Assembly: GCA_022843025.1 (NCBI GenBank)
Contig: JALHOL010000001.1
Coordinates: forward strand, 372,001 to 436,000
Source: Paracoccaceae bacterium
Lineage (GTDB): Bacteria; Pseudomonadota; Alphaproteobacteria; Rhodobacterales; Rhodobacteraceae
Reading direction: 5' to 3'
Length of the DNA stretch: 64,000 nucleotides
Below the pieces are notes generated by a model. That model saw only the letters and a list, made by a program, of their open reading frames with translations. It searched no databases and had not been told where the DNA came from. A program made the translations under genes and the position numbers. Shown here one piece after another: positions 4,493 to 62,210 of the stretch (its first letter is position 1; every line of letters begins with the position of its first letter).

Positions 4493-4615
4493 GCGAAATC
4501 TGACGCAGATTTCGCGACGATTTCTGCACGCAGAAATCGCTGATGGGTGTCATGCCTTTGGGTTGGGGGCGGAGTTTGCGTCAAACTCCGGTGCGAAATC
4601 TGCGTCAGATTTCGC
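4493..4615. repeat. cluster of four perfect hairpins
   Basis: Four inverted repeats: 4493-4515 (arm GCGAAATCTG, loop ACG), 4518-4539 (arm CGATTTCTG, loop CACG), 4571-4589 (arm GGAGTTTG, loop CGT) and 4593-4615 (arm GCGAAATCTG, loop CGT). The first and last are exact reverse complements of each other over 23 bases. The cluster fills the space between the convergent matB and arsR genes; the fourth hairpin supplies the last codons and stop of arsR. Related clusters occur at 34922, 53501 and 62102. It may end transcription from both sides, though no hairpin has a long T run. Confidence 0.85.
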
Positions 4616-4952
4616 TGTCTTCGGGGAGTTCGGAGGCGAGGAAGCGTTCGAAGGCATCCAGATCGACCGGGTCGAACTGGCCAAAGCCCTGCATCCAGAC
4701 GGAAGCCGCGCGCAGGGCATCGGGTTCCAGCTTGCACCATTTCACGCGGCCGCGCTTTTCCTGCGTGATCAGGCCGGCATCGGCCAGCACGGCAAGGTGC
4801 TTTGAGATCGCGGCCAGCGACATGGCAAAGGGATGGGCGACATCGGTGACGGCCATGTCATCCTCTAGAAGCATCGTCAGGATGGCGCGGCGCGTGGGAT
4901 CGGCCAGCGCGGCGAAGACGGTGTCGAGCGGATGGGGCGCGGGGCTGGTCAT
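4605..4952 (-). CDS. ArsR-family winged-helix transcriptional regulator
   Basis: Dimeric DNA-binding repressor of 115 aa. The N-terminal LDTVFAALADPTRRAILTML and the recognition-helix region SLAAISKHLAVLADAGLI are characteristic. There is no metal-binding ELCVC box in helix 3 (the region reads DDMAVTDVAHPF), so it is probably not an arsenic or cadmium sensor; it looks like the ArsR type usually linked to SRPBCC/AHSA1 proteins, but no such gene is adjacent. A perfect operator-like palindrome lies 32 bases upstream, suggesting self-regulation. Its last codons fall in the hairpin cluster at 4593-4615. Confidence 0.9.
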   Translation of the reverse strand: MTSPAPHPLDTVFAALADPTRRAILTMLLEDDMAVTDVAHPFAMSLAAISKHLAVLADAGLITQEKRGRVKWCKLEPDALRAASVWMQGFGQFDPVDLDAFERFLASELPEDSEI

Positions 4953-4983
4953 GCGGCATGTTTGGGGGGCAGGGGTGGGATCG

Positions 4984-4999
4984 TCAACCGTTTGGTTGA
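4984..4999 (-). promoter_or_regulatory. operator-like palindrome upstream of arsR
   Basis: Perfect inverted repeat TCAACC-GTTT-GGTTGA, 32 bases before the arsR start codon. CAACC-N4-GGTTG sites are common in front of ArsR-type regulators of this class. Read on the minus strand, the site lies where the promoter should be, consistent with autorepression. Confidence 0.6.
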
Positions 5000-5112
5000 A
5001 TATGCCAATAGGGCGGGATGTGGGCTGCCGGGGGGTGGCTTGGCTTGTGGCGCCGGAAAATTATGCATTGAAAACAGATCGTTGGGGCAGGGTTTTGGCG
5101 GGATTTCGGTGC

Positions 5113-5141
5113 TTGACTCAGGCACCCCCCCTCCGTAGTTA
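5113..5141 (+). promoter_or_regulatory. candidate sigma-70 promoter of the atp F0 operon
   Basis: TTGACT (5113-5118), a 17-base spacer, then TAGTTA (5136-5141), 29 bases before the atpI start. No other good pair is visible in the 218-base gap between arsR and atpI. Confidence 0.6.
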
Positions 5142-5170
5142 TCCCCCGACTGTTCTGGGGGCACCCAACC

Positions 5171-5503
5171 ATGGCTGAAGACCCTGATCGCGAGCGTCTG
5201 CGGGCGCTTGAGGAAAGGATCGCCAAGGTGAAGGGCGTGGTCGAAGGACCCGCCAAGCGCCATCAGGACAGCCAGTATTCGCAGGCCAATCTGGCATGGC
5301 GGATGGTGGTGGAACTTGTGGCCGGTCTGGGGATCGGCTTCGGCATCGGATACGGGCTGGATGTTCTGTTTGGAACGCTGCCCATCTTCATGGTGCTGTT
5401 CATTTTCGCGGGTCTCGCGGCGGGTGTGAAAACCATGCTGAGATCGGCGAAAGAGGTGCAGGAACGCAAGGCGGCCGAGGCCGCCGAAGAAGGGGACGAC
5501 TGA
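5171..5503 (+). CDS. atpI: ATP synthase protein I (AtpI/AtpQ-like)
   Basis: Small membrane protein encoded first in F0 operons and thought to help assemble the c-ring or supply magnesium. The 110-aa product has a charged N-terminal helix ([14 protein letters not shown]), two membrane segments (about residues 45-65 and 70-88, with [13 protein letters not shown]) and a charged tail. The family is poorly conserved; position and topology carry the call. atpB starts one base after its stop, so they are cotranscribed. Confidence 0.88.
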
Positions 5504-5504
5504 C

Positions 5505-6257
5505 GTGGCGGAAGAGGCGCATAGCGAAGGCGGTCTGGTGTTTCACCCGATGGACCAGTTCATCGTCAAGCCGCTGTTCGGCGATGGTCCGGTGGAATGG
5601 TACACGCCCACGAACGTGACGCTGTGGCTGGGCATTGCGGTGCTGTGCACGGTGGCGCTGTTCGTGATGGGCACGCGCGGCCGGGCGATCATTCCGACGC
5701 GGGTGCAATCCATCGCGGAACTGGCCTACGGGTTCATCTACAAGATGGTGGAAGATATCGCCGGGCCGGATGGCGCGAAGTATTTCCCCAAGATCTTTAC
5801 GCTGTTCGTCTTCATCATGATGACGAACTATCTGGCGCTGATCCCGATGTCCTATAGCCCCACGTCGCATATCGCGGCGACGGCGGTTCTGGGCTTTGGC
5901 GTGTTCATCGCCGTGACGGTGCTGGGTTTCGTCAAGAACGGTGCGCATTTTCTTGGCCTGTTCTGGATGTCCGAGGCGCCGCTGGTGCTGCGCCCGATCA
6001 TCGCGGTGATCGAGGTCATTTCCTACTTTGTGCGCCCGGTCAGCCATTCCATCCGACTGGCGGGCAACATCATGGCCGGCCATACGGTGATCAAGGTGTT
6101 CGCTGCCTTTGCCGGGGTGGTTGCCCTGGCGCCGGTGTCGATCCTGGCGATCGTCGCGATCTATGGGCTTGAGGTGCTGGTCGCCTTTATCCAGGCCTAT
6201 GTCTTTACCATCCTGACCTGCGTCTATCTGCGGGATGCCCTGCATCCCGGCCACTGA
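5505..6257 (+). CDS. atpB: F0F1 ATP synthase subunit a
   Basis: Stator subunit forming the proton half-channels next to the c-ring in the cytoplasmic membrane. The 250-aa protein has several membrane segments, the essential arginine in [14 protein letters not shown] and the C-terminal [15 protein letters not shown] helix. The start is GTG at 5505, one base after the atpI stop, with AGGGGA upstream; the first in-frame ATG would remove conserved N-terminal sequence. Part of the I-a-c-b'-b F0 operon; the F1 genes are not in this window, the split arrangement usual for Rhodobacter relatives. Confidence 0.96.
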
Positions 6258-6304
6258 GGCGCCTGTCGGTTCTAATCAACAGCATTCCATCTAAGGAGAA
6301 AATC

Positions 6305-6541
6305 ATGGAAGGCGATATCGCAAGCATGGGTCAGTTCATCGGTGCCGGCCTCGCCGCCATCGGGTCGGGCGTGGCCGCTGTCGGTGTGGGCAACGTGGCC
6401 GCGAACTTCCTGGCGGGCGCCCTGCGCAACCCGTCGGCAGCCGGTTCGCAGACCGCGACGCTGTTCATCGGTCTGGCCTTTGCAGAAGCTCTGGGGATTT
6501 TCGCGTTCCTCGTGGCACTTCTGCTGATGTTCGCCGTCTGA
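6305..6541 (+). CDS. atpE: F0F1 ATP synthase subunit c
   Basis: Proteolipid that forms the rotating ring of F0. The 78-aa hairpin protein has two membrane helices joined by the polar loop ([11 protein letters not shown]). The proton-binding acid is the Glu in [13 protein letters not shown]. The N-terminal helix has the glycine/alanine-rich [18 protein letters not shown] packing face. AAGGAG lies 7 bases before the ATG, the best ribosome site in the operon, as expected for a subunit made in excess. Confidence 0.97.
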
Positions 6542-6569
6542 TCTGACTTCGTATCCTTATTGGGGGGCA

Positions 6570-6585
6570 CGCCGGGGAACCGGCG
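6570..6585 (+). other. intercistronic hairpin between atpE and atpF2
   Basis: Arms CGCCGG (6570-6575) and CCGGCG (6580-6585) with loop GGAA, in the 80-base gap between atpE and the b' gene. It has no T run, so it is not a full terminator. It could stabilise the atpE part of the mRNA or slow downstream expression, helping to make many c subunits per b subunit. That role is inference. Confidence 0.4.
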
Positions 6586-6621
6586 GCCCTTCGAAGTTCA
6601 AAGGGTCCGACGGAGGACAAG

Positions 6622-7170
6622 ATGGCAACTGAATCGACTGCCGATGTGATCGGAGCCTGCGTGGATGCCAATGGCAGTGCCATTGGGATGCCGCAGCTGT
6701 GCGTGGAGTGGATGCCGAACCAGATCTTCTGGTTGGTCGTCGCGCTGATCGCGATCTATTTCGTCCTGTCGCGTATCGCGCTGCCCCGGATTGGCGGGGT
6801 TCTGGCCGAGCGCAAGGGCACGATCACGAATGACCTGACGGCAGCGGAAGAACTGAAGGCCAAGGCGGTGGAAGCCGAGAAAGCCTATCAGGATGCGTTG
6901 ACGCGGGCGCGGGCGGAGGCTGCAAAGATTGTGGCCGAGGCGCGGGCCGACATCCAGAAGGATCTGGATGCCGCAACGGCGCGGGCCGATGCCGAGATCG
7001 CGGCGCGATCGGCGGAATCGGAAAAGCGGATCGGCGAAATTCGTGCCGGGGCGCTGGAAGCCGTGACCGAAGTGGCGAAGGATACCGCCAAGGAACTGGT
7101 CAATGCGCTGGGCGGCAAGGCGGATGCGCGGTCGGTGACCGCGGCTGTGACCGCACGGCTGAAAGGGTGA
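6622..7170 (+). CDS. atpF2: F0F1 ATP synthase subunit b' (b2)
   Basis: Half of the heterodimeric peripheral stalk. The 182-aa product has one membrane segment near residues 35-52 ([15 protein letters not shown]) followed by a long charged coiled coil rich in Ala, Glu and Lys. The [14 protein letters not shown] run before the membrane helix is typical of b' rather than b. Paired with atpF downstream; organisms with b and b' make a heterodimer in place of b2. Confidence 0.94.
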
Positions 7171-7733
7171 TGGCGATGAGAACGCTTCTGGCATTTCTGG
7201 CGCTGTCTGCCACCCCGGCCTTTGCGGCGGCGGGCAAGCCGTTCTTTTCGCTGAGCAACACCGATTTCGTGGTGAGCATCGGTTTCCTCGTCTTTATCGG
7301 CATCCTGCTGAAGTACAAGGTGCCGGGCAAGATCGTGGGGCTGCTCGACAGCCGCGCGGCGCAGATCAAGGCGGAACTGGAAGAGGCGCGCAGCCTGCGC
7401 GACGAAGCCAAGGCGCTGCTGGCATCCTATGAGCGCAAGCAAAAGGACGTGCAGGAGCAATCCGAGCGGATCGTTGCAAACGCCAAGGAAGAGGCGATGA
7501 ACGCGGCAGAGCAGGCCAAGGCCGATCTGCAGGCGTCGATCGCCCGGCGGATGGCGGCGGCTGAGGATCAGATCGCTTCGGCCGAAGCATCGGCCATTCG
7601 CGCAGTGCGCGAGCAGGCGATTGCGGTGGCGGTTGCGGCAGCGGGCGATGTGCTGGCCAAGCAGATGACGGCAGAGGGCACCTCTGCCTCTATCGACGCG
7701 GCGATTGCGCAGGTGGAAGCCAAGCTGCACTGA
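7170..7733 (+). CDS. atpF: F0F1 ATP synthase subunit b
   Basis: Second peripheral-stalk subunit. The product (about 187 aa) has a signal-like N-terminus (RTLLAFLALSATPAFAAAG), then the membrane helix near FVVSIGFLVFIGILL and a long coiled coil. The start could be ATG 7170, which overlaps the b' stop as TGATG, or ATG 7176; a GTG at 7167 is also in frame. The overlap implies translational coupling. It is the last gene of the operon and is followed by a terminator. Confidence 0.94.
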   Translation: MAMRTLLAFLALSATPAFAAAGKPFFSLSNTDFVVSIGFLVFIGILLKYKVPGKIVGLLDSRAAQIKAELEEARSLRDEAKALLASYERKQKDVQEQSERIVANAKEEAMNAAEQAKADLQASIARRMAAAEDQIASAEASAIRAVREQAIAVAVAAAGDVLAKQMTAEGTSASIDAAIAQVEAKLH

Positions 7734-7759
7734 TCCGGCGGGTCAATTGGAATGGAAGG

Positions 7760-7784
7760 AACCCGGCCTTGCGCCGGGTTTTTT
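7760..7784 (+). terminator. intrinsic terminator of the atp F0 operon
   Basis: Arms AACCCGGC (7760-7767) and GCCGGGTT (7773-7780), loop CTTGC, with a run of six T at 7779-7784. It lies 26 bases after atpF and shortly before the convergent gntR gene ends. Confidence 0.9.
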
Positions 7785-7793
7785 CATGGGCCG

Positions 7794-8561
7794 CTACCGG
7801 CCCTGTTCGTGTTCCAGCCTTTGGCGGGCAATGGATTCGTTGCGTTCGGCGCGGATCTGTTCGTTCAGCGCGGTTTCGACATAGGTGAGGTGGGCCTCTA
7901 TCGCGCTGCGGGCGGCGGCGGGATCGCGGGCTTGTAGGGCGGCGTTGATGGCGCGGTGCTGATCCAAGAGCGCCTCGCGCGTGGTGCGGGCCTTGAACAT
8001 CATCTGGCGATTGTAGAACACGCCCTGACGAAGCAGGTCGAACATCGACCGCATCATGTGCAGCATGACGACGTTATGGCTGGCCTCGATGATGGCCATG
8101 TGAAATTCGGCGTCCAACGCCGCCTCATCCGACGGATCGCGTTTGCCATGGGCGGCTTCCATCTTGGCGTAGATGGCGTTGATGACCATGAGATCGGTGT
8201 CTGAGGCGAGGCGGGCGGCGCGTTCGGCGGCCAGCCCCTCCATATCGCGGCGAAAGGCGATGTAGTCGAACACAGCCTCATCATGGCGGGAGAAGAGGTC
8301 CACCAGCGCGGGGGCAAAGGCGGAACCAAGCACGTCGGCCACGTAGATGCCCGCGTTGGGGCGGGCGACCAGAAGGCCGCGATCCTGAAGATCACCCACG
8401 GCTTCGCGCAGCGAAGGGCGCGAGACATCCATCCGTTCCGACAGTTCGCGTTCGGAAGGCAGGCGTTCGCCGGGGCGCAGGATGCCGCGCAGGATCAGAA
8501 GTTCGATCTGCCGGATCACGGTCTGCGACAGCTTTTCGGGGCGGACTTTGTGGAACGGCAT
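7794..8561 (-). CDS. GntR/FadR-family (FCD) transcriptional repressor, likely of glycolate genes
   Basis: DNA-binding regulator of 255 aa. The winged helix (residues 1-75) has the GntR signature LRPGERLPSERELSERM and RPSLREAVGDLQDRGLL. The C-terminal FCD ligand domain keeps its metal-binding set: Asp and His in LDAEFHMAI, His in LDQHRAINA and His in EAHLTYVE, which usually bind a metal and an organic acid. Start at 8561 (MPFHKVRPEKL) is preferred over an upstream ATG at 8612, because the longer frame would translate the operator. An operator-like site (8576-8596) with TTGGT-N11-ACCAA covers its promoter, and the same pattern lies at glcD (30574-30594), so a GlcC/LldR-like role as glycolate-responsive repressor is proposed. 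Confidence 0.9.
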   Translation of the reverse strand: MPFHKVRPEKLSQTVIRQIELLILRGILRPGERLPSERELSERMDVSRPSLREAVGDLQDRGLLVARPNAGIYVADVLGSAFAPALVDLFSRHDEAVFDYIAFRRDMEGLAAERAARLASDTDLMVINAIYAKMEAAHGKRDPSDEAALDAEFHMAIIEASHNVVMLHMMRSMFDLLRQGVFYNRQMMFKARTTREALLDQHRAINAALQARDPAAARSAIEAHLTYVETALNEQIRAERNESIARQRLEHEQGR

Positions 8562-8575
8562 GGCACCCCCAAGGA

Positions 8576-8596
8576 TTGGTCGGAATTTATGACCAA
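8576..8596 (-). promoter_or_regulatory. operator-like site upstream of the GntR gene
   Basis: Inverted repeat TTGGTC-N9-GACCAA, that is TTGGT-N11-ACCAA, 14 bases before the gntR start. On the minus strand an AT-rich CATAAATT stretch inside the site can act as -10 box with TTGTGG as -35, so binding would block transcription. The same half-sites with identical 11-base spacing lie upstream of glcD. Confidence 0.65.
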
Positions 8597-8612
8597 AGCC
8601 GGGGGTCCACAA

Positions 8613-8643
8613 TGAAAAAGGCCGGGCAGTTTGCCCGGCCTTT
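8613..8643 (-). terminator. intrinsic terminator after the OmpA lipoprotein gene
   Basis: Arms AAAGGCCGGGC (8617-8627) and GCCCGGCCTTT (8633-8643) with a 5-base loop. Read on the minus strand the hairpin is followed by TTTTTC, ending the transcript of the 8663-9322 gene before the gntR promoter. Confidence 0.85.
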
Positions 8644-8662
8644 GACGGTGAGGGATGCGCGA

Positions 8663-9322
8663 TCAGCGGGTCGGGCGGATGATGATTTCCACGCGACGGT
8701 TCTGCGCGCGCCCTTCGGGCGTGAGGTTCGAGGCGATGGGCTGATCCTCGCCCCGGCCAAAGGCCGTGACGCGGGCCGAGGGCACGCCGCTGTTGCGCAG
8801 CACGGACGCGACCGAAACGGCGCGGCGCTGCGAAAGATCCTGATTGTAGCTGGCCGAACCGGTGTTGTCGGTGTGGCCGATGATCTGGATCTGGCTGTTG
8901 GGATAGCGCAGCAGGTTCTGGGCGACAGACTGGATGTCGCTGGCGAGGTCGGGGCGCAGCGAGGCGCTGTCGACAGCGAAAAGAACGTCCTGCGGCATGT
9001 TCACGACAAGGTAGTCACCCATGTTGGTGACGTTGAACTGGCCGTTGATGCCGCGCAGTTCGGCGGCCTGCTGGTCCAGCGTGGTGCCGATGGCACCGCC
9101 GACGATGGCACCAATGCCTGCGCCAACGGCGGTTTTCAGCACGCGGTCATCGCTGCTTTGCGAGCCGAGAAGGCCGCCAGCCATGGCACCGATCAGCGCA
9201 CCCGACTGGGCGCGGGGGCCCATCTGCGGGGTGGTCTGGGTGGCATAGGGATCAGCCGGGACGCAGGCGGTGAGCGCCAGAACGGCGAATGCGGAAAGGA
9301 TGAGGGGGGTCTTGAAGGTCAT
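8663..9322 (-). CDS. OmpA-family outer-membrane lipoprotein
   Basis: Likely anchors the outer membrane to peptidoglycan. The 219-aa precursor has a lipoprotein signal with lipobox LTAC (Cys20), a glycine-zipper stretch at about residues 40-80 (ALIGAMAGGLLG and VGAGIGAIVGGAIG), and a C-terminal OmpA/MotB domain from about residue 105 with the peptidoglycan-binding pattern IIGHTDNTGSASYN, LSQRRAVSVASVL and AQNRRVEI. The order lipobox, glycine zipper, OmpA domain is the YiaD/Pal-like family. It has its own terminator. Confidence 0.92.
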   Translation of the reverse strand: MTFKTPLILSAFAVLALTACVPADPYATQTTPQMGPRAQSGALIGAMAGGLLGSQSSDDRVLKTAVGAGIGAIVGGAIGTTLDQQAAELRGINGQFNVTNMGDYLVVNMPQDVLFAVDSASLRPDLASDIQSVAQNLLRYPNSQIQIIGHTDNTGSASYNQDLSQRRAVSVASVLRNSGVPSARVTAFGRGEDQPIASNLTPEGRAQNRRVEIIIRPTR

Positions 9323-9430
9323 TTTGTCGCCTTGATCTATATCGCCCGCAGGTGCGGGTGCCGGGTGTTCTTATACCAGTCTGTACACGCGCAGGATAGC
9401 ACAGCCCCCGCTGCGGCGACATTCCGCGCA

Positions 9431-10282: not shown

Positions 10283-10387
10283 CGCTGTCTCCTGTAAGGG
10301 CAATCTAGGCGCGCGGGCGGCGACAGGCGACCCGGAATCTGCGCATCCTGACTTGCCCGCTGCGGCGCGGTCGCTTATGGCGGGGCG

Positions 10388-11032
10388 ATGGCCAAGCAGC
10401 TTCCCTATGCCGCGATGAAGGAAATCTTCACCCGCTTTCACGCGCTGGATGCAGCGCCGGAAGGCGAGTTGGAGCATGTGAATGCCTTTACCCTGCTGGT
10501 GGCGGTGGCGCTGTCGGCGCAGGCCACCGATGTGGGCGTGAACAAGGCGACGCGCGGGCTGTTTGCCGTGGCCGACAGTCCGGAAAAGATGCTGGCTTTG
10601 GGCGAAGACGGGCTGATCGGTTACATCAAGACCATCGGCCTGTTCCGCAACAAGGCGAAGAACGTCATCAAGCTGAGCCGTATCCTGATCGAGGAATATG
10701 GCGGCGAGGTGCCATCCTCGCGCGCGGCGCTGCAATCGCTGCCGGGTGTGGGGCGCAAGACGGCGAATGTGGTGCTGAACATGTGGTTCAAGCAACCGGC
10801 GCAGGCGGTGGACACGCATATCTTTCGCCTTGGCAACCGCAGCGGCATTGCGCCCGGCAAGGATGAAACCGCGGTCGAGCGGGCCATCGAGGACCATGTC
10901 CCGGCCGAGTTTCAGCTGCACGCCCATCACTGGATGATCCTGCATGGCCGCTATATCTGCGTGGCGCGCAAACCCAAATGCGGCATCTGCCCGATCCGCG
11001 ATCTTTGTATGTATGAGGAAAAGACCGAATGA
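10388..11032 (+). CDS. nth: endonuclease III
   Basis: Base-excision-repair glycosylase/AP lyase acting on oxidised pyrimidines. The 214-aa protein shows the helix-hairpin-helix LPGVGRKTANVVL with catalytic Lys124, the catalytic Asp142 in VDTHI, and the four cysteines of the [4Fe-4S] loop at 191, 198, 201 and 207 (spacing C-x6-C-x2-C-x5-C). Length and motifs are normal. Its stop overlaps the start of the PfkB kinase gene (ATGA), so the two are translated together although they have no obvious shared role. Confidence 0.97.
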   Translation: MAKQLPYAAMKEIFTRFHALDAAPEGELEHVNAFTLLVAVALSAQATDVGVNKATRGLFAVADSPEKMLALGEDGLIGYIKTIGLFRNKAKNVIKLSRILIEEYGGEVPSSRAALQSLPGVGRKTANVVLNMWFKQPAQAVDTHIFRLGNRSGIAPGKDETAVERAIEDHVPAEFQLHAHHWMILHGRYICVARKPKCGICPIRDLCMYEEKTE

Positions 11033-33596: not shown

Positions 33597-34886
33597 ATGC
33601 AGACGAATTTCACCCCGGAGCAATTGGCAATCCCGGCGCTGGCGCGATCGAACGAGATCTTGCGGTCTTGCGTGCATTGCGGGTTCTGCACGGCGACCTG
33701 CCCCACCTATCAGGTGCTGGGCGATGAGTTGGACAGCCCGCGCGGGCGGATCTACCTGATCAAGGACATGCTGGAGACGGGCCGCGCGGCGGATGCGCGG
33801 ACGGTGAAGCATATCGACCGCTGCCTTTCGTGCCTGTCCTGCATGACGACCTGCCCGTCGGGGGTGCATTACATGCATCTGGTGGACCATGCCCGCGCGC
33901 ATATCGAGGCGACTTATAAGCGGCCCATCACGGACCGGGCGCTGCGGTTCGTGCTGGCCAAGGTTCTGCCTTATCCGATGCGGTTCCGGGTGGCGCTGCT
34001 GTTGGCCAAGATCGGCAAACCCTTTGCGCGGCTGATCCCGGATGCGCGGGTGCAGGCGATGCTGGAGATGGTGCCAAAGCGGGTGCCGCCCGTATCGCGC
34101 AACGACGACCCGCAGAGCTTTGCCCCGATGGGTGCGCGCAAGATGCGGGTGGCGCTGATGACGGGCTGCGCGCAGAAGGCACTGAACACCGATATCAACG
34201 ATGCCACGATCCGGCTGCTGCGGCGGTTGGGATGTGAGGTGGTGGTGCCGCGTGGCATGGGCTGCTGCGGGGCGCTGACGCATCATATGGGGCGCGAGGC
34301 TGAGGCGCATGGATTTGCCGCCGCCAATATCCGCGCTTTCATGGCGGAAGTGGAGGGGGACGGGCTGGACGCCATCGTCATCAACACCAGCGGCTGCGGC
34401 ACGACGGTCAAGGATTACGGCCATATGTTCCGCACCGAAGCCGAGGCCGAGGCGGCAAAGCGGGTCTCGGCGCTGGCCTGTGACGTGTCGGAACTGTTGG
34501 CGCGGATCGGGCTGCCGCAGGGGGCGGCGAAGGGGATGCGCGTGGCCTATCACGCGGCCTGTTCGTTGCAGCATGGCCAGCAGATCAAGACCGCGCCGAA
34601 AGACCTGCTGAAGCGGGTGGGGTTCGAGGTGGTAGAACCTGCCGACAGCCATTTGTGCTGCGGGTCGGCGGGGACGTATAACCTGCTGCAACCCGAGATT
34701 TCCAAGGAGTTGAAGGCGCGCAAGGTGCGGACGCTGGAGGCGAAGGCGCCGGATGTGATCTCGGCCGGGAATATCGGCTGCATGATGCAGATCGGATCGG
34801 GGACCGGGGTGCCGGTGGTGCATACGGTGGAATTGTTGGACTGGGCGACAGGCGGGCCGAAGCCGCGTGCCTTGACCGAGGCGTGA
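33597..34886 (+). CDS. glcF: glycolate oxidase iron-sulfur subunit GlcF
   Basis: Electron-transfer subunit of 429 aa, peripheral on the cytoplasmic membrane. Two [4Fe-4S] ferredoxin motifs are visible: SCVHCGFCTATCP (from residue 24) and RCLSCLSCMTTCP (about residues 78-90). Two CCG domains follow (MGCCGALTHHMG and HLCCGSAGTYNL), as in heterodisulfide-reductase-like proteins. The conserved RGRIYLIKDMLETGR is present. It ends the operon; a hairpin pair and a dispersed repeat follow. Confidence 0.96.
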   Translation: MQTNFTPEQLAIPALARSNEILRSCVHCGFCTATCPTYQVLGDELDSPRGRIYLIKDMLETGRAADARTVKHIDRCLSCLSCMTTCPSGVHYMHLVDHARAHIEATYKRPITDRALRFVLAKVLPYPMRFRVALLLAKIGKPFARLIPDARVQAMLEMVPKRVPPVSRNDDPQSFAPMGARKMRVALMTGCAQKALNTDINDATIRLLRRLGCEVVVPRGMGCCGALTHHMGREAEAHGFAAANIRAFMAEVEGDGLDAIVINTSGCGTTVKDYGHMFRTEAEAEAAKRVSALACDVSELLARIGLPQGAAKGMRVAYHAACSLQHGQQIKTAPKDLLKRVGFEVVEPADSHLCCGSAGTYNLLQPEISKELKARKVRTLEAKAPDVISAGNIGCMMQIGSGTGVPVVHTVELLDWATGGPKPRALTEA

Positions 34887-34921: not shown

Positions 34922-34968
34922 AAAATTCTGACACAGAATTTTGCACGATTTCTGGATCAGAAATCGTG
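34922..34968. repeat. two perfect hairpins after glcF
   Basis: 34922-34942 (arm AAAATTCTG, loop ACA) and 34944-34968 (arm CACGATTTCTG, loop GAT). The second shares CGATTTCTG...CAGAAATCG with a hairpin of the 4493-4615 cluster. It begins 35 bases after the glcF stop. The 305-base region between glcF and the first protease (34887-35191) holds this pair, the dispersed element at 35004-35057 and nothing else that I can identify. Confidence 0.8.
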
Positions 34969-37709: not shown

Positions 37710-37752
37710 TCCGGTAGCTGCCCCTGCCCGCGGGGCAGGGGCCGACACTGGC

Positions 37753-37780
37753 GGGGCGCCCAGAAAGGGCGCCCCTTTTT
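37753..37780. terminator. bidirectional terminator
   Basis: Arms GGGGCGCCC (37753-37761) and GGGCGCCCC (37767-37775), loop AGAAA, then TTTTT. It serves the second protease gene on the plus strand and can also stop the convergent peptidoglycan-binding-like gene. Confidence 0.85.
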
Positions 37781-38805: not shown

Positions 38806-39435
38806 ATGACGCGCAGTTACACTCTTTCCGAACCCGCCCGCGCCCGCCGTGAGGCGCAGAAGCAATCCACCCGGCAGGCCCTGCTGGATGCGGCGCGCGC
38901 CATCGCGGCCGAGCGCGGGGTTGAGGCGATTTCCGTGGTCGAGGTGTCGCGGCGGGCCGGTGTGTCACACAGCCTGATCAACGCTTATTTCGACGGGAAG
39001 GTCGGGCTGATCGCGGCCTTGGTGAAAGGGGTCTATGGCGCGCTGCTAGAGCGGACCGAGGCGATTGCCGCCGGGCCAGGCAGCGAGGTGGACAGGCTGC
39101 GCGCGATCCTGGTGGATTGGGCCGCGTTCGATCTGGCCGACCCAAAGCTGCTGCGGGTGTTGCAGGCGCATGGCTGGACATGGTCCGAGGCGGCAGAGGC
39201 CGCAAACCGCGCCGACCGACAGGCGTTTCTGGCCCCAGTGGGGGGGCTGATCCGGGCGGGGCAGGCGTCAGGGGTGTTCCGGCAGAAGGCGGCGCTGGAG
39301 GATGCGCTGCCGGCGATCTGGGCCATCTATACCGTCGGGATGCGCGATGCGGTGTTTGCCACGCCGGTGCCCGCCCCCGAAGACGCAGTCGCCGCGATCT
39401 GGGGTCAGATCGCGGCGCTGTTGCTGGAAGGGTGA
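38806..39435 (+). CDS. TetR-family transcriptional regulator
   Basis: 209-aa repressor. The N-terminal helix-turn-helix is TRQALLDAARAIAAERGVEA, then VEVSRRAGVSHSLINAYFDG (recognition helix) and KVGLIAALVKGVYGAL. The C-terminal ligand domain is of the common TetR_C type and cannot be matched to a ligand. No efflux or enzyme gene is adjacent in the usual divergent position, so the target is unknown. Confidence 0.9.
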   Translation: MTRSYTLSEPARARREAQKQSTRQALLDAARAIAAERGVEAISVVEVSRRAGVSHSLINAYFDGKVGLIAALVKGVYGALLERTEAIAAGPGSEVDRLRAILVDWAAFDLADPKLLRVLQAHGWTWSEAAEAANRADRQAFLAPVGGLIRAGQASGVFRQKAALEDALPAIWAIYTVGMRDAVFATPVPAPEDAVAAIWGQIAALLLEG

Positions 39436-44877: not shown

Positions 44878-44896
44878 GAATCCCTGTCAGGGATTC
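44878..44896. repeat. single hairpin upstream of the double-OmpA gene
   Basis: Perfect repeat with arm GAATCCCT and loop GTC, 37 bases before the start of the double-OmpA gene. Its CTG-T-CAG centre and size match the hairpins of the clusters at 4493 and 34922. It lies in the 99-base gap to ubiA. Confidence 0.6.
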
Positions 44897-53500: not shown

Positions 53501-53559
53501 GCCAAATTCGTTGGCCAAATTCGTTGGAACGAATTTGCAAGTTTCTTCCAAGAAATTTG
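53501..53559. repeat. hairpin pair with a duplicated half-arm
   Basis: GCCAAATTCGTTG occurs twice in tandem (53501-53513, 53514-53526). A hairpin of arm CAAATTCGTT, loop GG follows at 53516-53537, then a second of arm CAAGTTTCTT (one G-U pair), loop CC, at 53538-53559. The pair sits between the divergent pyrB and glycosylase genes, in the promoter region of both. Confidence 0.7.
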
Positions 53560-55092: not shown

Positions 55093-55096
55093 GGGC

Positions 55097-55639: not shown

Positions 55640-55755
55640 CGACGGAAGCGCGCGGGACGGGCGTTTAACAGGGTATTGGCCTGTTTCACGCAGGCTTCAT
55701 TGGTCTTTGGCGGCGGGCGGGCTAGCCTTGTCGGGCCGGTTGCAAAGGGAATTTC

Positions 55756-57210: not shown

Positions 57211-60200
57211 TGCGGTCGCGCGGAATCCTGTCCTATTTCGTGCGGCACCGGACGCTCGCCAATCTGGTGATGGTGCTGATGCTGGTGGGCGGGCTGGTGG
57301 CCGCGCTGAACATCCGCGCGCAATACTTCCCCGATGTTGTCCTGTCCGAGGTGGATGTCGATGTGTCCTGGCCCGGCGCGGGGGCCGAGGATGTGGATCG
57401 CGGCATCGTTCAGGTTCTGGAACCCGCGCTGAAGACGGTGGAGGGGGTGGCCGCCACCTATGCGCGGTCTTCCGAAGGGCGGGCGTCGATCGAGATCGAG
57501 TTTGAACCCGGCGTCGATCTGGACCGCGCCGCGCAGGATGTGGCCGCGGCGGTCGAGGGCGTATCAACCCTGCCCGCCGATGCCGAGGAGCCGGAGGTCA
57601 GCCGCAGCGCGTGGCGCGATCAGGTGACGGATGTGGTGATCACCGGGCCGGTTGCGGTGGACCAGTTGGCGCGGCTGGCGGATGAATTCACCGGGCGGCT
57701 TTTCGCGGCGGGCGTGACGCGGGCCACGATCAGCGGTCTGGCCGCCCCCCAGACAGTGGTGGAGGTCACGCCCGTCGCCCTGATGCGCCATGACGTGACG
57801 ATGGAACAGATTGCCAATGCCATCGCATCCGCCGTGGTGACGCGCCCGGCGGGCGAGGTGGCGACCGGGGCCGCGCGGGTGCGCACGGGCGAAGAACGCC
57901 GCGCCGCCGAAGAGATCGGTGATATCGCCCTGCGCGCGGGGCCGGATGGCACCGTGCTGCGCATCCGCGATGTGGCGACGATCCGCGTCGAAGGCGCGGA
58001 CCGGGGCCGCGCGGCCTTTGTCGGGCCGAACCCGGCCATGGTGATCCGGGTGGAGCGCGGACCCGAGGGCGATGCCATCGACCAGCAGGCCCGGGTGGCC
58101 GACGCGGCGGCGGCAATGCGCCCCGCCTTGCCCGAAGGCGTGACGCTGGACCTTGTCCGCACGCGGGCCGAACAGATCACCGACCGGCTGACGCTGATGC
58201 TGGACAACGCGCTGTCGGGGATGGTGCTGGTGGTGCTGATGTTGTTCCTGTTCCTGAACGGGCGCATTGCGCTTTGGGTGGCGGCAGGGATTCCCGTGGC
58301 CACGATTGCCGCCATCGGCGTGATGTGGATGGGCGGGGTCACGCTGAACATGATCTCGCTCTTTGCGCTGATTCTGGTGCTGGGCGTGATCGTGGATGAT
58401 TCCATCGTGGTGGGGGAGCATGCTGATTTCCGGGTGCGCCAGATGGGCGAAACGCCCATGGTGGCGGCGGAACGGGCGGCGGTGCGGATGGCGGGGCCGG
58501 TGCTGGCCTCGACCCTGACCACGGTGATCGCCTTCCTTGCATTGGCCGCGATTGGCGGGCGGTTCGGCGACCTGATCAAGGATATCCCCTTTACCGTCAT
58601 GGCGGTGATGGTGGCGTCGCTGATCGAATGTTTTCTGATCCTGCCCAATCACATGGCCCATGCCTTGGCGGATTCGGTGAAGGAGAAATGGTATGACGCG
58701 CCAAGCCGGTTCACCAACCGGCAGCTCGACCGTTTCAAGGACGCGGTGATGAAGCCGCTGATGCGGGGAGTGATCGCCGCGCGGTATCCGGTGCTGGCGG
58801 CGGCGGTGCTGGCGCTGGCCACGCAGGCGGCGCTGTTTGTGCGCGGCGATGTGCAGTTCCGGTTCTTCAACGCACCCGAACAGGGATCGTTGAGCGGGAA
58901 TTTCGCGATGCTGCCGGGGGCCACGCGCGATGACACGCTGGCGATGATGGCCGAGTTGCAGCGCGCGGTGGATGCCGTGGGCGCGGCGTTTGAGGCAGAG
59001 CATGGCCTGAACCCGGTGGAATTTGTAATGGCCGAGGTGGGCGGCGGTTCGGGGCGCGGCCTGTCGGGCGCGGCGACCAAGGACCCGGATCTGCTGGGCG
59101 GCGTGTCCATCGAGATCGTCAATCCCGACCTGCGCCCCTATTCCAGCGCAGCGGTGATCGCCGCCATCGAGGCCGAGGTGCGCCGCCACCCGCTGCTGGA
59201 GGAGCTGAGCTTTCGCGGTGGCCGCTTTGGCCCCGGTGGGGCCGCGCTTTCGGTGGATTTCTACGGCGCGGATGCGGGCGTTCTGAAGGCGGCGGCCGAG
59301 GCGTTGAAGGCACGGCTGGCGGTGTTTCCCGAAGTGTCGGGGCTGGAGGATACGCTTGCCTATGACAAGGAGGAACTGGTTCTGAGCCTGACGCCGACAG
59401 GGCAGGCGCTGGGCTTTTCCATCGACGGGTTGGCGGCTGACCTGCGGGACATGCTGGGGGGCATCGAGGCCGCCACTTATCCTGACGGGCCGCGATCCGC
59501 CGCGATCCGGGTGGAACTGCCGCCGGGTGAATTGACGGCAGATTTCCTGGATCGGATGCAGATGCGGGCGGTCGGCAGCGAAGGCACAACGGTCTATGTG
59601 CCGCTGGCCGATATCGTGACGGTGGCGCAGGCTTCGGGCTTTTCATCCGTGGTGCGGGAAAACGGGCTGCGGGTGGTCACCGTTTCGGGCGAACTGTCCG
59701 AAGATGACCCGGCGCGGGCAAGCGAGATTCAGGTCGCGCTCCGGGCGGAGTTCGTGCCGCAGGTGGAGCAGGATTTCGGCGTGATGGCACGCTATTCCGG
59801 GCAGGCCGAACAGGAGCAGGAATTCCTCAGCGGCGCGGCCGTGGCGGTGGTGCTGGCATTGTTGGGCATCTACCTGTGCCTCGCATGGATTTTCGCCAGC
59901 TGGTCACGGCCGATGGTGGTGATGTCGGTCATTCCCTTTGGTCTGGTGGGCGCGATCTTTGGCCATTGGGTGTGGGATGTGCCGTTGTCGATGTTTTCCA
60001 TCGTGGGGATCATCGGCATGTCGGGGATCATCGTGAACGATTCCATCGTTCTGGTATCGACCATCGACGAGTATTCTGAAAAGCGCGGGCTGATCCCGGC
60101 GGTGGTGGATGCGGTGGCGGATCGCTTGCGCCCGGTGCTGCTGACGACGCTGACCACTGTGCTGGGGTTGGCGCCCCTGCTGTTCGAGCGGTCCAGTCAG

Positions 60201-60578
60201 GCCGAGTTCCTGAAGCCCACGGTGGTGACGCTGGTCTTTGGGCTGGGTTTCGGGATGTTTCTGGTGCTGTTGGTGGTGCCCGCGATCACGGTGGTGCTGA
60301 ACGATGGTGGGCGGCGGTTCCGTGCGCTGCGGCGGGCGGTGCGGGCGCGCGGGCGGATGCAGCGCGCGATGCGCGGGGCCGTGCTGGCCGTGGCGGTGGC
60401 GTTGGTCGCGGTGATGGGGCCTGTGCTGGCAAGCGGTGCGCTGCCCGGCTGGTTGCTTTCTGTACTGCCGGGGCTGGGCGGGCTGCCCGTGGGGTTGGCC
60501 GCGCTGCTGGTGGTGGGGGCAACGGCTGCGCTGGTGACTGGCGGGGTCTGGCTGGCTGGGCGGCGGCGCGCGGCCTGA
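57210..60578 (+). CDS. RND-family efflux transporter permease
   Basis: Inner-membrane proton-driven exporter of 1122 aa. It has twelve expected helices in two halves with large periplasmic loops. The first half opens RHRTLANLVMVLMLVGGLVA; TM4 carries the proton-relay pair in GVIVDDSIVVGEH. The second half has GIIGMSGIIVNDSIVLVSTI. The AcrB-like TQDPKGS of drug pumps is not seen, and this belongs to the heterogeneous AcrB/AcrD/AcrF group annotated in alphaproteobacteria. Two extra hydrophobic segments (residues about 1045-1115) extend the C-terminus. No outer-membrane gene is adjacent, so a shared TolC is implied. Confidence 0.93.
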   Translation: MRSRGILSYFVRHRTLANLVMVLMLVGGLVAALNIRAQYFPDVVLSEVDVDVSWPGAGAEDVDRGIVQVLEPALKTVEGVAATYARSSEGRASIEIEFEPGVDLDRAAQDVAAAVEGVSTLPADAEEPEVSRSAWRDQVTDVVITGPVAVDQLARLADEFTGRLFAAGVTRATISGLAAPQTVVEVTPVALMRHDVTMEQIANAIASAVVTRPAGEVATGAARVRTGEERRAAEEIGDIALRAGPDGTVLRIRDVATIRVEGADRGRAAFVGPNPAMVIRVERGPEGDAIDQQARVADAAAAMRPALPEGVTLDLVRTRAEQITDRLTLMLDNALSGMVLVVLMLFLFLNGRIALWVAAGIPVATIAAIGVMWMGGVTLNMISLFALILVLGVIVDDSIVVGEHADFRVRQMGETPMVAAERAAVRMAGPVLASTLTTVIAFLALAAIGGRFGDLIKDIPFTVMAVMVASLIECFLILPNHMAHALADSVKEKWYDAPSRFTNRQLDRFKDAVMKPLMRGVIAARYPVLAAAVLALATQAALFVRGDVQFRFFNAPEQGSLSGNFAMLPGATRDDTLAMMAELQRAVDAVGAAFEAEHGLNPVEFVMAEVGGGSGRGLSGAATKDPDLLGGVSIEIVNPDLRPYSSAAVIAAIEAEVRRHPLLEELSFRGGRFGPGGAALSVDFYGADAGVLKAAAEALKARLAVFPEVSGLEDTLAYDKEELVLSLTPTGQALGFSIDGLAADLRDMLGGIEAATYPDGPRSAAIRVELPPGELTADFLDRMQMRAVGSEGTTVYVPLADIVTVAQASGFSSVVRENGLRVVTVSGELSEDDPARASEIQVALRAEFVPQVEQDFGVMARYSGQAEQEQEFLSGAAVAVVLALLGIYLCLAWIFASWSRPMVVMSVIPFGLVGAIFGHWVWDVPLSMFSIVGIIGMSGIIVNDSIVLVSTIDEYSEKRGLIPAVVDAVADRLRPVLLTTLTTVLGLAPLLFERSSQAEFLKPTVVTLVFGLGFGMFLVLLVVPAITVVLNDGGRRFRALRRAVRARGRMQRAMRGAVLAVAVALVAVMGPVLASGALPGWLLSVLPGLGGLPVGLAALLVVGATAALVTGGVWLAGRRRAA

Positions 60579-60604
60579 CGGCGCAGGTCAGGGCCCGGCG
60601 TCGC

Positions 60605-61405
60605 TTAAGGTGCCGGGCAGCCCCGGATTTCCACCGCGCGATTGGCCGAGATGACGGTCACGGTAACGCCGGACCGGTCCAGCGCAAAGGGCGTGCCCTG
60701 CGGTGGCACCATTTCGGCGCTGGCGGTCAGGGTGCCGCCGCTGCGGTTGGCGCTGGCCTCGGATACCCAGACATCGGAATGCCCGCTTTCGAACACCACG
60801 GTTTCCGCGCCGCCGCCTGCGGGCAAGCCCATGGTTGCGGTGATGCGCAGCCCGTCGCTGATCGGGTCCACTGCACAGCCGATGCCGGACAGCCCCGCCT
60901 GCCGCGCCGATATCGGACGGTCGGCCAGCGCCGCATCGATCACCGCATCCGGCGCACCGGGGCCTGCGATCACGCTGTCCAGAGTCAGGCTCGCCGGGAT
61001 GCAGATGTCATCACACACGCCCAGATCGACCGTCGCTTTCAAGCGTACGGGTTGCGACGGATCGACGGGGATCACCTCGATCGGCAGGACAAGATCGTTC
61101 TTGTAGCCCACCGTCGTCATCCCGTTCAGGGTAAAGACATGCGGGCGTGGCCAGTGGAACTGCACCGCGCGCAGGTTTTCGCTGCCCGACCAATCAAAGC
61201 TGGGCGGGATGCCCGCATCGCCGGGGCTGCGCCAATAGGTCTTCCACCCCGGGGCCATGGTCAGGTGCAGCGCCGTCATATGCGCGCCGCTTTCGGCCTG
61301 CCATCCCGTGCGCAGATCACCCGACAGCACGTCTTCCTGTGAAAAGGCAGCGGCGGGCAGGGCGGGGGCAATAAGGGCAAAGGTAAGAAGGGCTATCTGG
61401 CGCAT
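60605..61405 (-). CDS. orphan DsbD N-terminal-domain (DsbC/DsbD-alpha-like) protein
   Basis: 266-aa secreted protein with signal peptide RQIALLTFALIAPALPAAAF. The region MTALHLTMAPGWKTYWRSPG, FHWPRPHVFTLNGMTTVGYK and the LGVCDDICIPASLTL cysteine pair match the nDsbD fold of thiol-disulfide exporters. The transmembrane and gamma domains of DsbD are absent. A similar pattern is seen in ScsB-like and cytochrome c biogenesis proteins. Start 61405; a longer frame to 61744 is antisense to yqgE. Divergent from yqgE. Confidence 0.85.
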   Translation of the reverse strand: MRQIALLTFALIAPALPAAAFSQEDVLSGDLRTGWQAESGAHMTALHLTMAPGWKTYWRSPGDAGIPPSFDWSGSENLRAVQFHWPRPHVFTLNGMTTVGYKNDLVLPIEVIPVDPSQPVRLKATVDLGVCDDICIPASLTLDSVIAGPGAPDAVIDAALADRPISARQAGLSGIGCAVDPISDGLRITATMGLPAGGGAETVVFESGHSDVWVSEASANRSGGTLTASAEMVPPQGTPFALDRSGVTVTVISANRAVEIRGCPAP

Positions 61406-61532
61406 GGGGCCAAGATAGGCAGGGCGGCTGTAATGGGAAATCACGTTCCAGAGAAACCATGTGACAGGAATGCCCTTGAGGCAGGGGCGCAACAGGCCCA
61501 TCTTGATGGGAAGATGTGCAGGGGAGGTGCCG

Positions 61533-62096
61533 ATGTCGGAACTGGATCTGGACGGAAAGCTGCTGGTCGCCATGCCGGGGATGGGCGATCCGCGCTTTGA
61601 AAAAAGCGTCATCCTGATCTGCGCCCATTCGGCTGAGGGCGCGATGGGCCTGATCATCAACCGCCCCGCGCGCGATCTGACCTTTGGCAATCTGCTGGAC
61701 CAGCTGTCGATTCCCCGTGTGCCCGAAGGGCGGGACATCCGCATCCATTCCGGCGGCCCGGTGGAACGCGGGCGCGGCTTCGTGCTGCATTCGCCTGACT
61801 ATACCGGGGGGCCTGCAACGATGCGAATCGGGTCGGATTACGGGATGACCGCGACGCTGGATATCCTTGAAGCGCTGGCGCGGGGCGATGGGCCTGCGCG
61901 CGCGCTGCTGGCGCTGGGCTATTCCGGCTGGGGGCCGGGGCAGTTGGAGGATGAGATCCGCGCCAATGGCTGGCTGATTGCGGACGCGGCGGAGGATCTG
62001 GTGTTCTCAGCCGACGACGCGGGCAAATGGGTGGGTGCGCTTCGGGCCATGGGCATTGACCCGCTGATGCTGTCCGCAGCGGCGGGCCGGGCCTGA
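61533..62096 (+). CDS. YqgE/AlgH family protein
   Basis: 187-aa cytoplasmic protein of unknown biochemical role; in Pseudomonas AlgH affects alginate regulation. LDLDGKLLVAMPGMGDPRFE, EGAMGLIINRPARDLTFGNL, IRIHSGGPVERGRGFVLHS and ALGYSGWGPGQLEDEIRANG are the full family set. GGGGAGG lies 5 bases before ATG 61533. Followed by the hairpin cluster 62102-62210. Confidence 0.95.
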   Translation: MSELDLDGKLLVAMPGMGDPRFEKSVILICAHSAEGAMGLIINRPARDLTFGNLLDQLSIPRVPEGRDIRIHSGGPVERGRGFVLHSPDYTGGPATMRIGSDYGMTATLDILEALARGDGPARALLALGYSGWGPGQLEDEIRANGWLIADAAEDLVFSADDAGKWVGALRAMGIDPLMLSAAAGRA

Positions 62097-62101
62097 GCGG
62101 G

Positions 62102-62210
62102 CGCAAATTTTTCAGGGAAAAATTTGCGGTTCCGGGCAAATTTTACCTGTAAAATTTGCAGGCCTTCGCAGAAGGCCTGCGCGGGAAAAGTTTTCAGTGA
62201 AAACTTTTCC
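62102..62210. repeat. cluster of four perfect hairpins after yqgE
   Basis: 62102-62128 (arm CGCAAATTTTTC, loop AGG), 62136-62159 (arm GCAAATTTTAC, loop CT), 62158-62180 (arm GCAGGCCTTC, loop GCA, sharing GC with the previous one) and 62184-62210 (arm GGAAAAGTTTTC, loop AGT). They fill the 116-base gap between convergent yqgE and the ALDH16 gene. Arms differ in sequence but all have 10-12 bp stems and 2-3 base loops, as in the 4493-4615 cluster. Confidence 0.85.

What the first reader, a model, noticed from the sequence alone, without database searches (positions are those of the whole stretch)
4493..62210. Family of tandem near-perfect hairpins with fixed shape but changing sequence
Clusters at 4493-4615 (four), 34922-34968 (two), 53501-53559 (two) and 62102-62210 (four), plus a single one at 44878-44896, share stem length (8-12 bp), loop length (2-4 bases) and often a CTG-N-CAG or TTTC-N-GAAA centre, while the arm sequences vary. 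Two hairpins of cluster 1 are exact reverse complements 100 bases apart, and one arm pair (CGATTTCTG/CAGAAATCG) recurs in cluster 2. Keeping the fold while the sequence changes suggests selection on RNA or cruciform structure, or a copying process that makes palindromes. Three of the four clusters lie at gene ends (two in convergent gaps).
Basis: seen in the sequence. Interest (0 to 1): 0.75.

Follow-up and report, generated by a model that had tools for sequence, protein, structure and literature searches.

The report
Paired hairpins after stop codons
In this group of bacteria, many genes are followed almost directly by short rows of DNA hairpins whose shape is kept by matched changes in both arms while the letters drift, which points to a little-studied kind of gene-end signal that reads the same on either strand.

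Summary
The hairpins are real and far above chance: 13 perfect stems of 10 bp or more in the window against 0.85 in shuffles. The genome belongs to the Rhodobacter/Tabrizicola group. The clusters belong to at least three REP-like formats: F1, a mirror-symmetric quartet (4493-4615); F2, a run of TTC-apex hairpins (62102-62210); F3, a 44-nt pair of abutting hairpins (53516-53559). F1 is found in 19 of 19 genomes of the genus, F3 in 59 of 248 of the family. At matching sites in eight other species, 57 base pairs changed on both sides to another Watson-Crick pair and 28 on one side only. Adjacent F3 hairpins never share arms in the sample (0 of 75, 9.7 expected), G-U pairs are as rare as A-C, and arrays start within 10 bp of a stop codon more often than chance (21 of 28, 13.2 expected). 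Best explanation: orientation-independent mRNA 3'-end elements that work like REP/BIME elements. The function is inferred; RNA barrier, DNA element and template-switch upkeep are not separated. New variant of a known kind.

The parts
4493..4515 (.). F1 quartet, hairpin 1: 10-bp stem, loop ACG; starts 5 bp after the matB stop codon
   Evidence: matched by F1 model R1 (L178:16493-16540)
4518..4539 (.). F1 quartet, hairpin 2: CGATTTCTG, loop CACG
4540..4569 (.). F1 spacer; no similarity to other F1 spacers seen by eye
   Evidence: read by eye, not tested
4570..4590 (.). F1 quartet, hairpin 3: CGGAGTTTG, loop CGT (mirror polarity)
   Evidence: L178:16569-16615, minus
4593..4615 (.). F1 quartet, hairpin 4: 10-bp stem, loop CGT; exact reverse complement of hairpin 1; overlaps the last codons of the arsR-like ORF
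34922..34942 (.). F1-like doublet, hairpin A (AAAATTCTG, loop ACA), 35 bp after the glcF stop
   Evidence: R1 match of 34.5 bits (L180)
34944..34968 (.). F1-like doublet, hairpin B (CACGATTTCTG, loop GAT)
   Evidence: perfect hairpins with changed arms at the same site in L137 and L138
53502..53514 (.). partial tandem copy of the first half of the next hairpin
   Evidence: read by eye
53516..53537 (.). F3 doublet, hairpin A (CAAATTCGTT, loop GG)
   Evidence: L181:5516-5559 = window
53538..53559 (.). F3 doublet, hairpin B (CAAGTTTCTT, loop CC; one G-T mismatch), abutting hairpin A
62102..62128 (.). F2 run, hairpin 1 (CGCAAATTTTTC, loop AGG), 5 bp after the yqgE stop
62136..62159 (.). F2 run, hairpin 2 (GCAAATTTTAC, loop CT)
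62158..62180 (.). F2 run, hairpin 3, GC-richer (GCAGGCCTTC, loop GCA)
62184..62210 (.). F2 run, hairpin 4 (GGAAAAGTTTTCA, loop G), ending 2 bp before the facing stop
2982..4487 (+). malonyl-CoA synthase (matB) gene upstream of cluster 1
   Evidence: NF005702, above cut-off
4605..4952 (-). ArsR/SmtB-type regulator gene facing cluster 1
   Evidence: NF033788, above cut-off
33597..34886 (+). glycolate oxidase iron-sulfur subunit (glcF) upstream of cluster 2
   Evidence: NF008434, above cut-off
61533..62096 (+). YqgE/AlgH family gene upstream of cluster 4
62213..64000 (-). aldehyde dehydrogenase family gene facing cluster 4 (predicted to run past the window end)

Best explanation
The clusters are members of REP-like families of short palindromic elements of Rhodobacteraceae, each a fixed array of small hairpins that fold on their own. 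F1 is [hairpin, loop ACG][hairpin, loop ACG]-spacer-[hairpin, loop CGT][hairpin, loop CGT]. F3 is two abutting 22-nt hairpins CAA.....TT-NN-AA.....TTG. F2 is a run of TTC-apex hairpins. Shown here: the pairing is kept by changes on both sides at matching sites; neighbouring hairpins avoid being alike, so that each folds with itself; F1 and F3 read much the same on both strands; and the arrays start mostly within 10 bp of a stop codon, most densely where two genes face each other in three of the four genomes examined. Inferred: the array is an orientation-independent gene-end element. Whichever gene is read into it, the mRNA ends in a row of independent stem-loops just behind the stop codon, which block 3'-to-5' exonucleases and so fix and protect the 3' end, much as REP elements are thought to do (recalled). 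Pairing has to hold on both strands because both are transcribed at convergent sites. Template switching at replication may help to restore broken arms.
For: Enrichment over shuffles. Half-element alignment A1: 98.9% of cells paired, 139 cells changed on both sides against 48.0 in shuffles (rows were picked for pairing, so biased). Less biased: in 75 F3 doublets whose inner five pairs the search pattern left free, 732 of 750 inner pairs are Watson-Crick (75 of 161 forward matches, the listed part; two pairs of doublets share a hairpin). At matching sites in 8 other species 67 of 118 hairpins were found again: 704 pair cells, 612 same, 57 changed on both sides to a Watson-Crick pair, 28 changed on one side, 7 double changes without pairing; within the species 57 of 57 hairpins, 553 cells same, 8 single, 0 double of 561. 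Neighbour avoidance: F3 0 of 75 doublets with identical inner arms against 9.7 expected; 0 of 46 after collapsing repeats against 4.2 (P 0.010); F1 0 of 37 (1.9 expected, P 0.12), mean difference 3.11 against 2.58 (P 0.0014; on 22 unique pairs P 0.044). For the alternative fold that pairs neighbours, all 500 shuffles reach or exceed the observed covariation in both families. Position: of 28 arrays in convergent or codirectional gaps 21 start within 10 bp of a facing stop, 13.2 expected (P 5e-05); 12 of 14 codirectional arrays are nearer the upstream stop than the downstream start (G041 and 6 unclassed arrays left out). Density per kb, convergent / codirectional / divergent: G000 2.07/0.65/0.41, G041 2.09/0.59/0.32, G002 4.06/0.80/0.
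Against: No RNA data. 5 of 36 arrays lie in gaps that I called divergent and 3 inside predicted genes; window cluster 3, which the array filter missed because of its mismatch, is one more outside gene ends. In G005 the convergent bias is missing (0.63, 0.64 and 0.51 per kb). A one-strand RNA element should tolerate G-U pairs: stems of 16 tRNAs in DNA of these genomes and relatives have 28 G-U of 346 pairs and no A-C, while these stems have 6 G-U and 6 A-C of 750. AT-rich stems are modest barriers (RNA -5.4 to -12.4 kcal/mol in the eight folded). In the window's F1 quartet the RNA minimum-energy fold pairs hairpin 1 with hairpin 4, not each with itself. The same sites are often empty or hold other palindromes in relatives (15 of 34 G000 hairpins not found again in G002), so no single site is essential.
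Confidence: 0.5

Rival explanations
1. Mutational upkeep: the elements are old dispersed palindromes without much function. Template switching at replication forks copies one arm onto the other, so that any single mutation is soon made into a perfect pair, and they persist behind stop codons because nothing is harmed there.
For: Template switching has been proposed to fix stems and make paired changes in one step (PMC8794818, abstract and opening read). 30 of 57 paired changes are of transversion type, which G-U intermediates do not explain. G-U and A-C mismatches are equally rare. F2 shows 3 inverted of 41 loops; one is clean, a 2-nt loop CT to AG with unchanged arms in G001, the other two are 1-nt loops with changed arms. 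Loop inversion is a signature of the process according to the start of the abstract of PMC8604942 seen in a search listing.
Against: F1 loop polarity is kept: 44 same, 24 other, 0 inverted of 68 non-palindromic loops. Within the species there are 8 single and 0 paired changes, so the paired state is not reached in one step at high rate. It does not by itself explain the place behind stop codons or the mirror-symmetric layout.
Confidence: 0.25
2. DNA-level element: hairpins or cruciforms in the DNA are bound or cut by a protein (as gyrase, IHF or a transposase act on REP/BIME elements; recalled), and act on supercoiling or chromosome structure at gene ends.
For: Pairing is nearly all Watson-Crick, with no G-U preference. 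Loops and feet are conserved while inner arms drift, and loop dialect differs between genomes: mostly ACG/CGT in the genus, mostly GCG/CGC in the G211 stretches.
Against: Nothing at DNA level explains why arrays begin directly behind stop codons; no binding protein is known. The 2-nt loops of F3 do not discriminate: the folding program opens the last pair for RNA and for DNA alike.
Confidence: 0.13
3. Intrinsic (Rho-independent) terminators, bidirectional where genes converge.
For: Place behind stop codons and in convergent gaps. Gaps with AT arrays rarely hold a canonical terminator as well: G000a 0 of 21, G002a 1 of 14, G005a 1 of 14. Some F2 runs include a GC-rich hairpin followed by TTTT (site 276127, L095).
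Against: The rarity just named is weak evidence: canonical terminators are rare by my rule in other gaps too (G000a 13 of 63 convergent and 10 of 273 codirectional gaps without arrays). F1 and F3 hairpins have no T-run behind them (read by eye) and their stems are AT-rich.
Confidence: 0.1

Closest known systems
REP elements and BIMEs (GTAG- and CGTC-tagged palindromic repeats, PMC3733652, passages read)
   Same: Short palindromes in many copies, outside genes, mostly between convergent and unidirectional genes and behind coding regions; stems with alternative complementary residues; dimers in opposite orientation, often heterodimers.
   Different: No GTAG or CGTC tag at the foot and no CCA tail; nearly perfect stems with loops of about 2-4 nt; fixed arrays (2+2 or 1+1) with mirror-symmetric loops; inner arms free but paired; hardly any G-T pairs, which that paper often saw in GTAG repeats; neighbours never alike in the sample.
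REPINs / RAYT-mobilised palindromes
   Same: Two or more palindromes in inverted order, many per genome.
   Different: REP-associated tyrosine transposase (NF047646) is found in only 6 of 19 genus genomes, not in G000, G041 or G002, while F1 is in 19 of 19. In L091 the RAYT gene lies by a GTAG-type palindrome.
Intercistronic and 3'-end mRNA-stabilising hairpins (such as the puf operon of Rhodobacter; recalled, no call)
   Same: Hairpins behind a coding region in the same family of bacteria; would work by the proposed mechanism.
   Different: As recalled, those are single local structures; these are repeated families in fixed array formats.
Rho-independent terminators
   Same: Hairpins at gene ends, bidirectional at convergent gaps.
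   Different: No T-run for F1 and F3, AT-rich stems, several hairpins in a row.

Membership tests
REP/BIME-like extragenic palindromic repeats (broad sense) | Short palindrome repeated many times per genome, mainly outside genes | tested here: met
   F1 1-138 matches per genus genome (both strands counted, at most 150 candidates scored); 33 of 36 classed arrays outside predicted genes
REP/BIME-like extragenic palindromic repeats (broad sense) | Preference for positions behind coding regions | tested here: met
   21 of 28 within 10 bp of a facing stop, 13.2 expected
GTAG- or CGTC-tagged REP super-families | Unpaired GTAG or CGTC at one foot of the hairpin (CGTC repeats: 8-9-bp stem, 4-5-nt loop, CCA tail) | tested here: not met
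   Aligned F1 and F3 units have paired CG or CAA/TTG feet and no such tag or tail (tag definition from PMC3733652). CGTC appears only across F1 loops. F2 was not aligned.
RAYT-mobilised REP/REPIN | Presence of a RAYT gene with the element at its flanks | tested here: not met
   NF047646 in 6 of 19 genomes against F1 in 19 of 19; flanks seen for one RAYT gene only (L091). PF01797 misses this RAYT type, so alone is no test.
MITE / active mobile element | Presence/absence polymorphism between close strains | tested here: not met
   57 of 57 hairpins of the 19 arrays on G000 C1:1-740000 found again in G041 of the same species. Identical F3 copies at several places in one genome point to past copying.
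Rho-independent terminator | GC-rich stem followed by a T-run | tested here: not met
   for F1 and F3 (by eye); some F2 hairpins do have a T-run
Described RNA families (Rfam 15) | Match at or above the gathering score | tested here: not met
   none in the window; only matches far below gathering scores
mRNA 3'-end stabiliser | mRNA 3' ends or decay stops at the hairpin; loss of hairpin shortens half-life | not testable with these tools
   no RNA data held

The most novel reading that the evidence does not exclude
A bidirectional gene-end module of Rhodobacteraceae built from 'orthogonal' hairpins: a trans-acting factor reads hairpin shape plus loop (ACG/CGT, GCG/CGC, GG/CC), the inner arms are free except that each must pair with itself and not with its neighbour, and replication-coupled template switching keeps them perfect. 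It would be a natural set of self-insulating palindromes in which structure, not sequence, is inherited.
Probability: 0.25. Interest if true: 0.8.

Novelty: new variant of a known kind. Interest (0 to 1): 0.6.

Why it matters
It adds abundant gene-end elements, not described in the papers I could search, to a large bacterial family. It also bears on two open points: why heterodimers are preferred among REP dimers (said to have no obvious explanation in PMC3733652), and whether perfect stems are kept by selection through mismatch intermediates or by template switching. Many short, independent hairpins per genome that can be matched between species, at codirectional and convergent sites, make both questions testable.

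Tried and rejected
Rfam scan: nothing relevant. Y1_Tnp PF01797 in the genus: none over the cut-off, later seen to be the wrong model for this RAYT; replaced by NF047646. Long-range pairing of hairpins 1x4 and 2x3 of F1: 165 of 250 pairs form over 14 quartets, some of them the same site in two strains, although in the window cluster the RNA minimum-energy fold does pair hairpin 1 with 4. Complementary loops (kissing) between halves: possible in many elements, not demonstrated; in F3 the right loop equals the reverse complement of the left in 50 of 75 against 40.5 expected (P 0.0008), which common descent would also give. First count of paired changes let two hairpins of one element match the same target and inflated doubles (76); replaced by the ordered one-to-one count (57). 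The loop comparison has the same fault and is not used. MAFFT alignments of the yqgE gap are not structure-aware (one search also had three rows on the wrong strand); not used for counts. Mismatch count by strand of transcription: only 2 codirectional cases (1 A-C, 1 other), too few. Searches for prior description (open-access papers only, titles and abstract starts seen) listed none of these elements that I could recognise.
Full report
1. Observation. Every hairpin in the finding is present at the given place. With perfect stems and loops of 0-6 nt the window has 20, 13 and 6 inverted repeats of at least 9, 10 and 11 bp; twenty dinucleotide shuffles give means of 3.8, 0.85 and 0.2. Not all 20 belong to the finding: several are GC-rich and of another kind. 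In 400 kb of the same genome, AT-rich hairpins in gaps between predicted genes number 14 (convergent, 5.6 kb), 15 (codirectional, 19.2 kb) and 3 (divergent, 12.6 kb), where shuffles give 0.0, 0.0 and 0.2.

2. Source. The closest named relatives by GlcF are Rhodobacter sp. BC.021, Rhodobacter ruber CCP-1 and Tabrizicola sp. TH137. Genes were called with a small hexamer-based finder of my own; it over-extends some starts (pyrB, for example), so gap types are approximate.

3. Anatomy. Three formats emerge. F1 is a quartet: a 10-bp hairpin with loop ACG, about 2 nt, a 9-bp hairpin with loop ACG or CACG, a spacer of 16-39 nt in the genus stretches fetched and 10-14 nt in G211 (from the match places), then the mirror image with loops CGT. 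The spacers show no common sequence by eye. The 47-nt half-element keeps a skeleton CG....TG-ACG-CA....CG twice, and the inner positions vary in pairs. F3 is two abutting 22-nt hairpins CAA.....TT-NN-AA.....TTG. F2 is a run of two to four hairpins with a TTC/GAA apex, the least well defined of the three. Window clusters 1, 3 and 4 are F1, F3 and F2; cluster 2 is an F1-like doublet (model R1, 34.5 bits). The single hairpin at 44878-44896 fits none.

4. Pairing is what is kept. On 37 half-elements, 98.9% of 703 cells pair and 139 cells are changed on both sides, against 48.0 in shuffles; sliding the partner by one column drops pairing to 40-43%. Those rows were picked for pairing. A freer sample is the pattern search, which fixed the feet and the apex but left the five inner pairs of each F3 hairpin open: of 750 inner pairs in the 75 doublets listed (of 161 forward matches in 8 genomes; the reversed control pattern found 0), 732 are Watson-Crick, 6 G-U, 6 A-C, 6 other. 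In the 26 F3 loci with the exact layout, 504 of 520 pairs are Watson-Crick, 4 G-U, 3 A-C, 9 other. At matching sites between G000 and eight other species, hairpins were matched in order and one to one: 67 of 118 found again, 704 pair cells, 612 unchanged, 57 changed on both sides to another Watson-Crick pair, 28 on one side (6 G-U, 10 A-C, 12 other), 7 doubly changed without pairing. Against the genome of the same species: 57 of 57 hairpins, 561 cells, 553 same, 8 single, 0 double. The reference hairpins are perfect by choice, so single changes on the G000 side are missed. From within the species (flanks 97.5% identical) to other species (flanks 81-88.5%), mismatched cells rise from 1.4% to 4.0% and paired changes from 0 to 8.1%: single mismatches are mostly transient, paired changes accumulate.

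5. Neighbours avoid each other. In F3 no doublet of 75 has the same inner arms in both hairpins where 9.7 are expected on shuffling within genomes; after collapsing repeated doublets 0 of 46 against 4.2 (P 0.010). In the 26 loci it is 0 of 26. In F1 0 of 37 adjacent pairs are identical (1.9 expected, P 0.12, not significant alone), but their mean distance is 3.11 against 2.58 (P 0.0014; P 0.044 on 22 unique pairs). For the alternative fold that pairs neighbours, all 500 shuffles reach or exceed the observed covariation in both families. Each hairpin is therefore kept from pairing with its neighbour. Slippage deletion of identical tandem units, or cleavage of longer palindromes (the explanation offered for REP heterodimers in PMC3733652, passages read), would give the same pattern.

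6. Place. One search lists 63 arrays in four genomes. With G041 left out to avoid counting a site twice, and 6 of the remaining 42 dropped because they fitted no format (four in G005, three of them GTAG-like, and two F1-like ones in G002), 36 remain: 14 convergent, 14 codirectional, 5 divergent, 3 inside predicted genes. Of the 28 in convergent or codirectional gaps, 21 start within 10 bp of a facing stop codon, 13.2 expected for random placing in the same gaps (P 5e-05); 12 of 14 codirectional arrays are nearer the upstream stop than the downstream start. Of 38 loci with F3 could be read and 22 of them lie within 11 bp of a predicted facing stop, one overlapping it. G005 lacks the convergent excess. 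Window cluster 3, not among the 36 because of its mismatch, lies in a divergent gap. The rule is a strong tendency only. At the same sites relatives may have other palindromes instead: GC-rich CGGGGGGC hairpins with CCCCGAGGATATTT, or GTAG-type repeats.

7. Spread. The F1 half-element model finds matches in 19 of 19 genus genomes (1 to 138 matches, both strands counted, at most 150 candidates scored per genome, E <= 0.001) and in 30 of 248 family genomes (E <= 0.01, 24 candidates scored). The F3 model finds 59 of 248 (E <= 0.001, 25 candidates scored). In 800 kb of G000 there are 22 half-elements. Loop dialects differ: mostly ACG/CGT in the genus, mostly GCG/CGC in the five G211 stretches. F3 loops in G000 are GG, TG or CG on one side and CC or CG on the other, while CG/CG prevails in G005 (13 of 21) and G008 (18 of 21). 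All 57 hairpins of the 19 arrays compared are present in G041, so they do not seem to be jumping now; identical F3 copies at several places in one genome show that they once spread. RAYT genes occur in 6 of 19 genus genomes, not in G000, G041 or G002.

8. Mechanism. Free inner sequence with strict pairing argues against an ordinary double-stranded binding site, because a dimeric protein would not force symmetry at bases it does not read (inference). That leaves a fold of one strand, as RNA or as single-stranded DNA. For RNA: place behind stop codons, excess at convergent ends in three of four genomes, and the view that REPs there act in the transcript (PMC3733652, passages). Against a one-strand RNA: 6 G-U and 6 A-C in 750 pairs, where stems of 16 tRNAs from the fetched DNA have 28 G-U and 0 A-C in 346; the palindromes are not oriented, so even if all 12 were G-U in the transcript it would be 1.6%. 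A need for the fold on both strands, which the mirror-symmetric layout also suggests, would account for this. I therefore commit to an orientation-independent 3'-end barrier (0.5), with template-switch upkeep (0.25), a DNA-level element (0.13) and termination (0.1) as rivals. On checking, the DNA rival went from 0.15 to 0.13: I had counted the 2-nt loops of F3 in its favour, but the program opens the last pair for RNA and DNA alike. Shown: fold, pairing, avoidance, place, spread. Inferred: transcription of the arrays, exonuclease blocking, need on both strands.

9. Known kinds. The elements work like, and in the broad sense belong with, REP/BIME elements. They fail the defining tag of the GTAG and CGTC super-families (F1 and F3 tested) and the RAYT link. 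I recognised no description in ten searches of an open-access library; subscription papers were not covered. PMC12306157 and PMC2267715 were seen only as passages, and the word Rhodobacter does not occur in their main texts.

Noticed in passing
L091:955-1428 (minus), downstream of yqgE in G012: A REP-associated tyrosine transposase gene (NF047646, 162 bits) beside a GTAG-type palindrome sits where other species have the four-hairpin F2 array; Pfam finds no family in it at E 0.01.
   Followed up: partly
L096, L097, L099, L102, L115, L117-L119 (gaps behind yqgE and matB): One subclade of the genus has GC-rich CGGGGGGC/GCCCCCCG hairpins plus a CCCCGAGGATATTT-like motif at the same gene ends where the window's subclade has AT-rich arrays.
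   Followed up: no
window 37720-37742 and 37753-37775; 39390-39417; 8617-8643: GC-rich perfect hairpins, two of them in tandem; 8617-8643 has an AAAGG...CCTTT stem that resembles an ordinary terminator.
   Followed up: no
window 53502-53537: A partial tandem duplication (about 13 bp) of the first half of the F3 hairpin, as expected from replication slippage at a palindrome.
   Followed up: no
L111 and L113 (matB gap in G006 and G014): The left arm of F1 hairpin 1 is missing and the remaining letters TGACG supply the matB stop codon, so the element runs into the end of the gene.
   Followed up: no
L155, L159 and L162: F1-like arrays with GC-richer arms (CGGCGTTTG, CGATGTCTG) in loci that came in with weak GlcF-like hits; they suggest a further F1 arm dialect.
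   Followed up: partly
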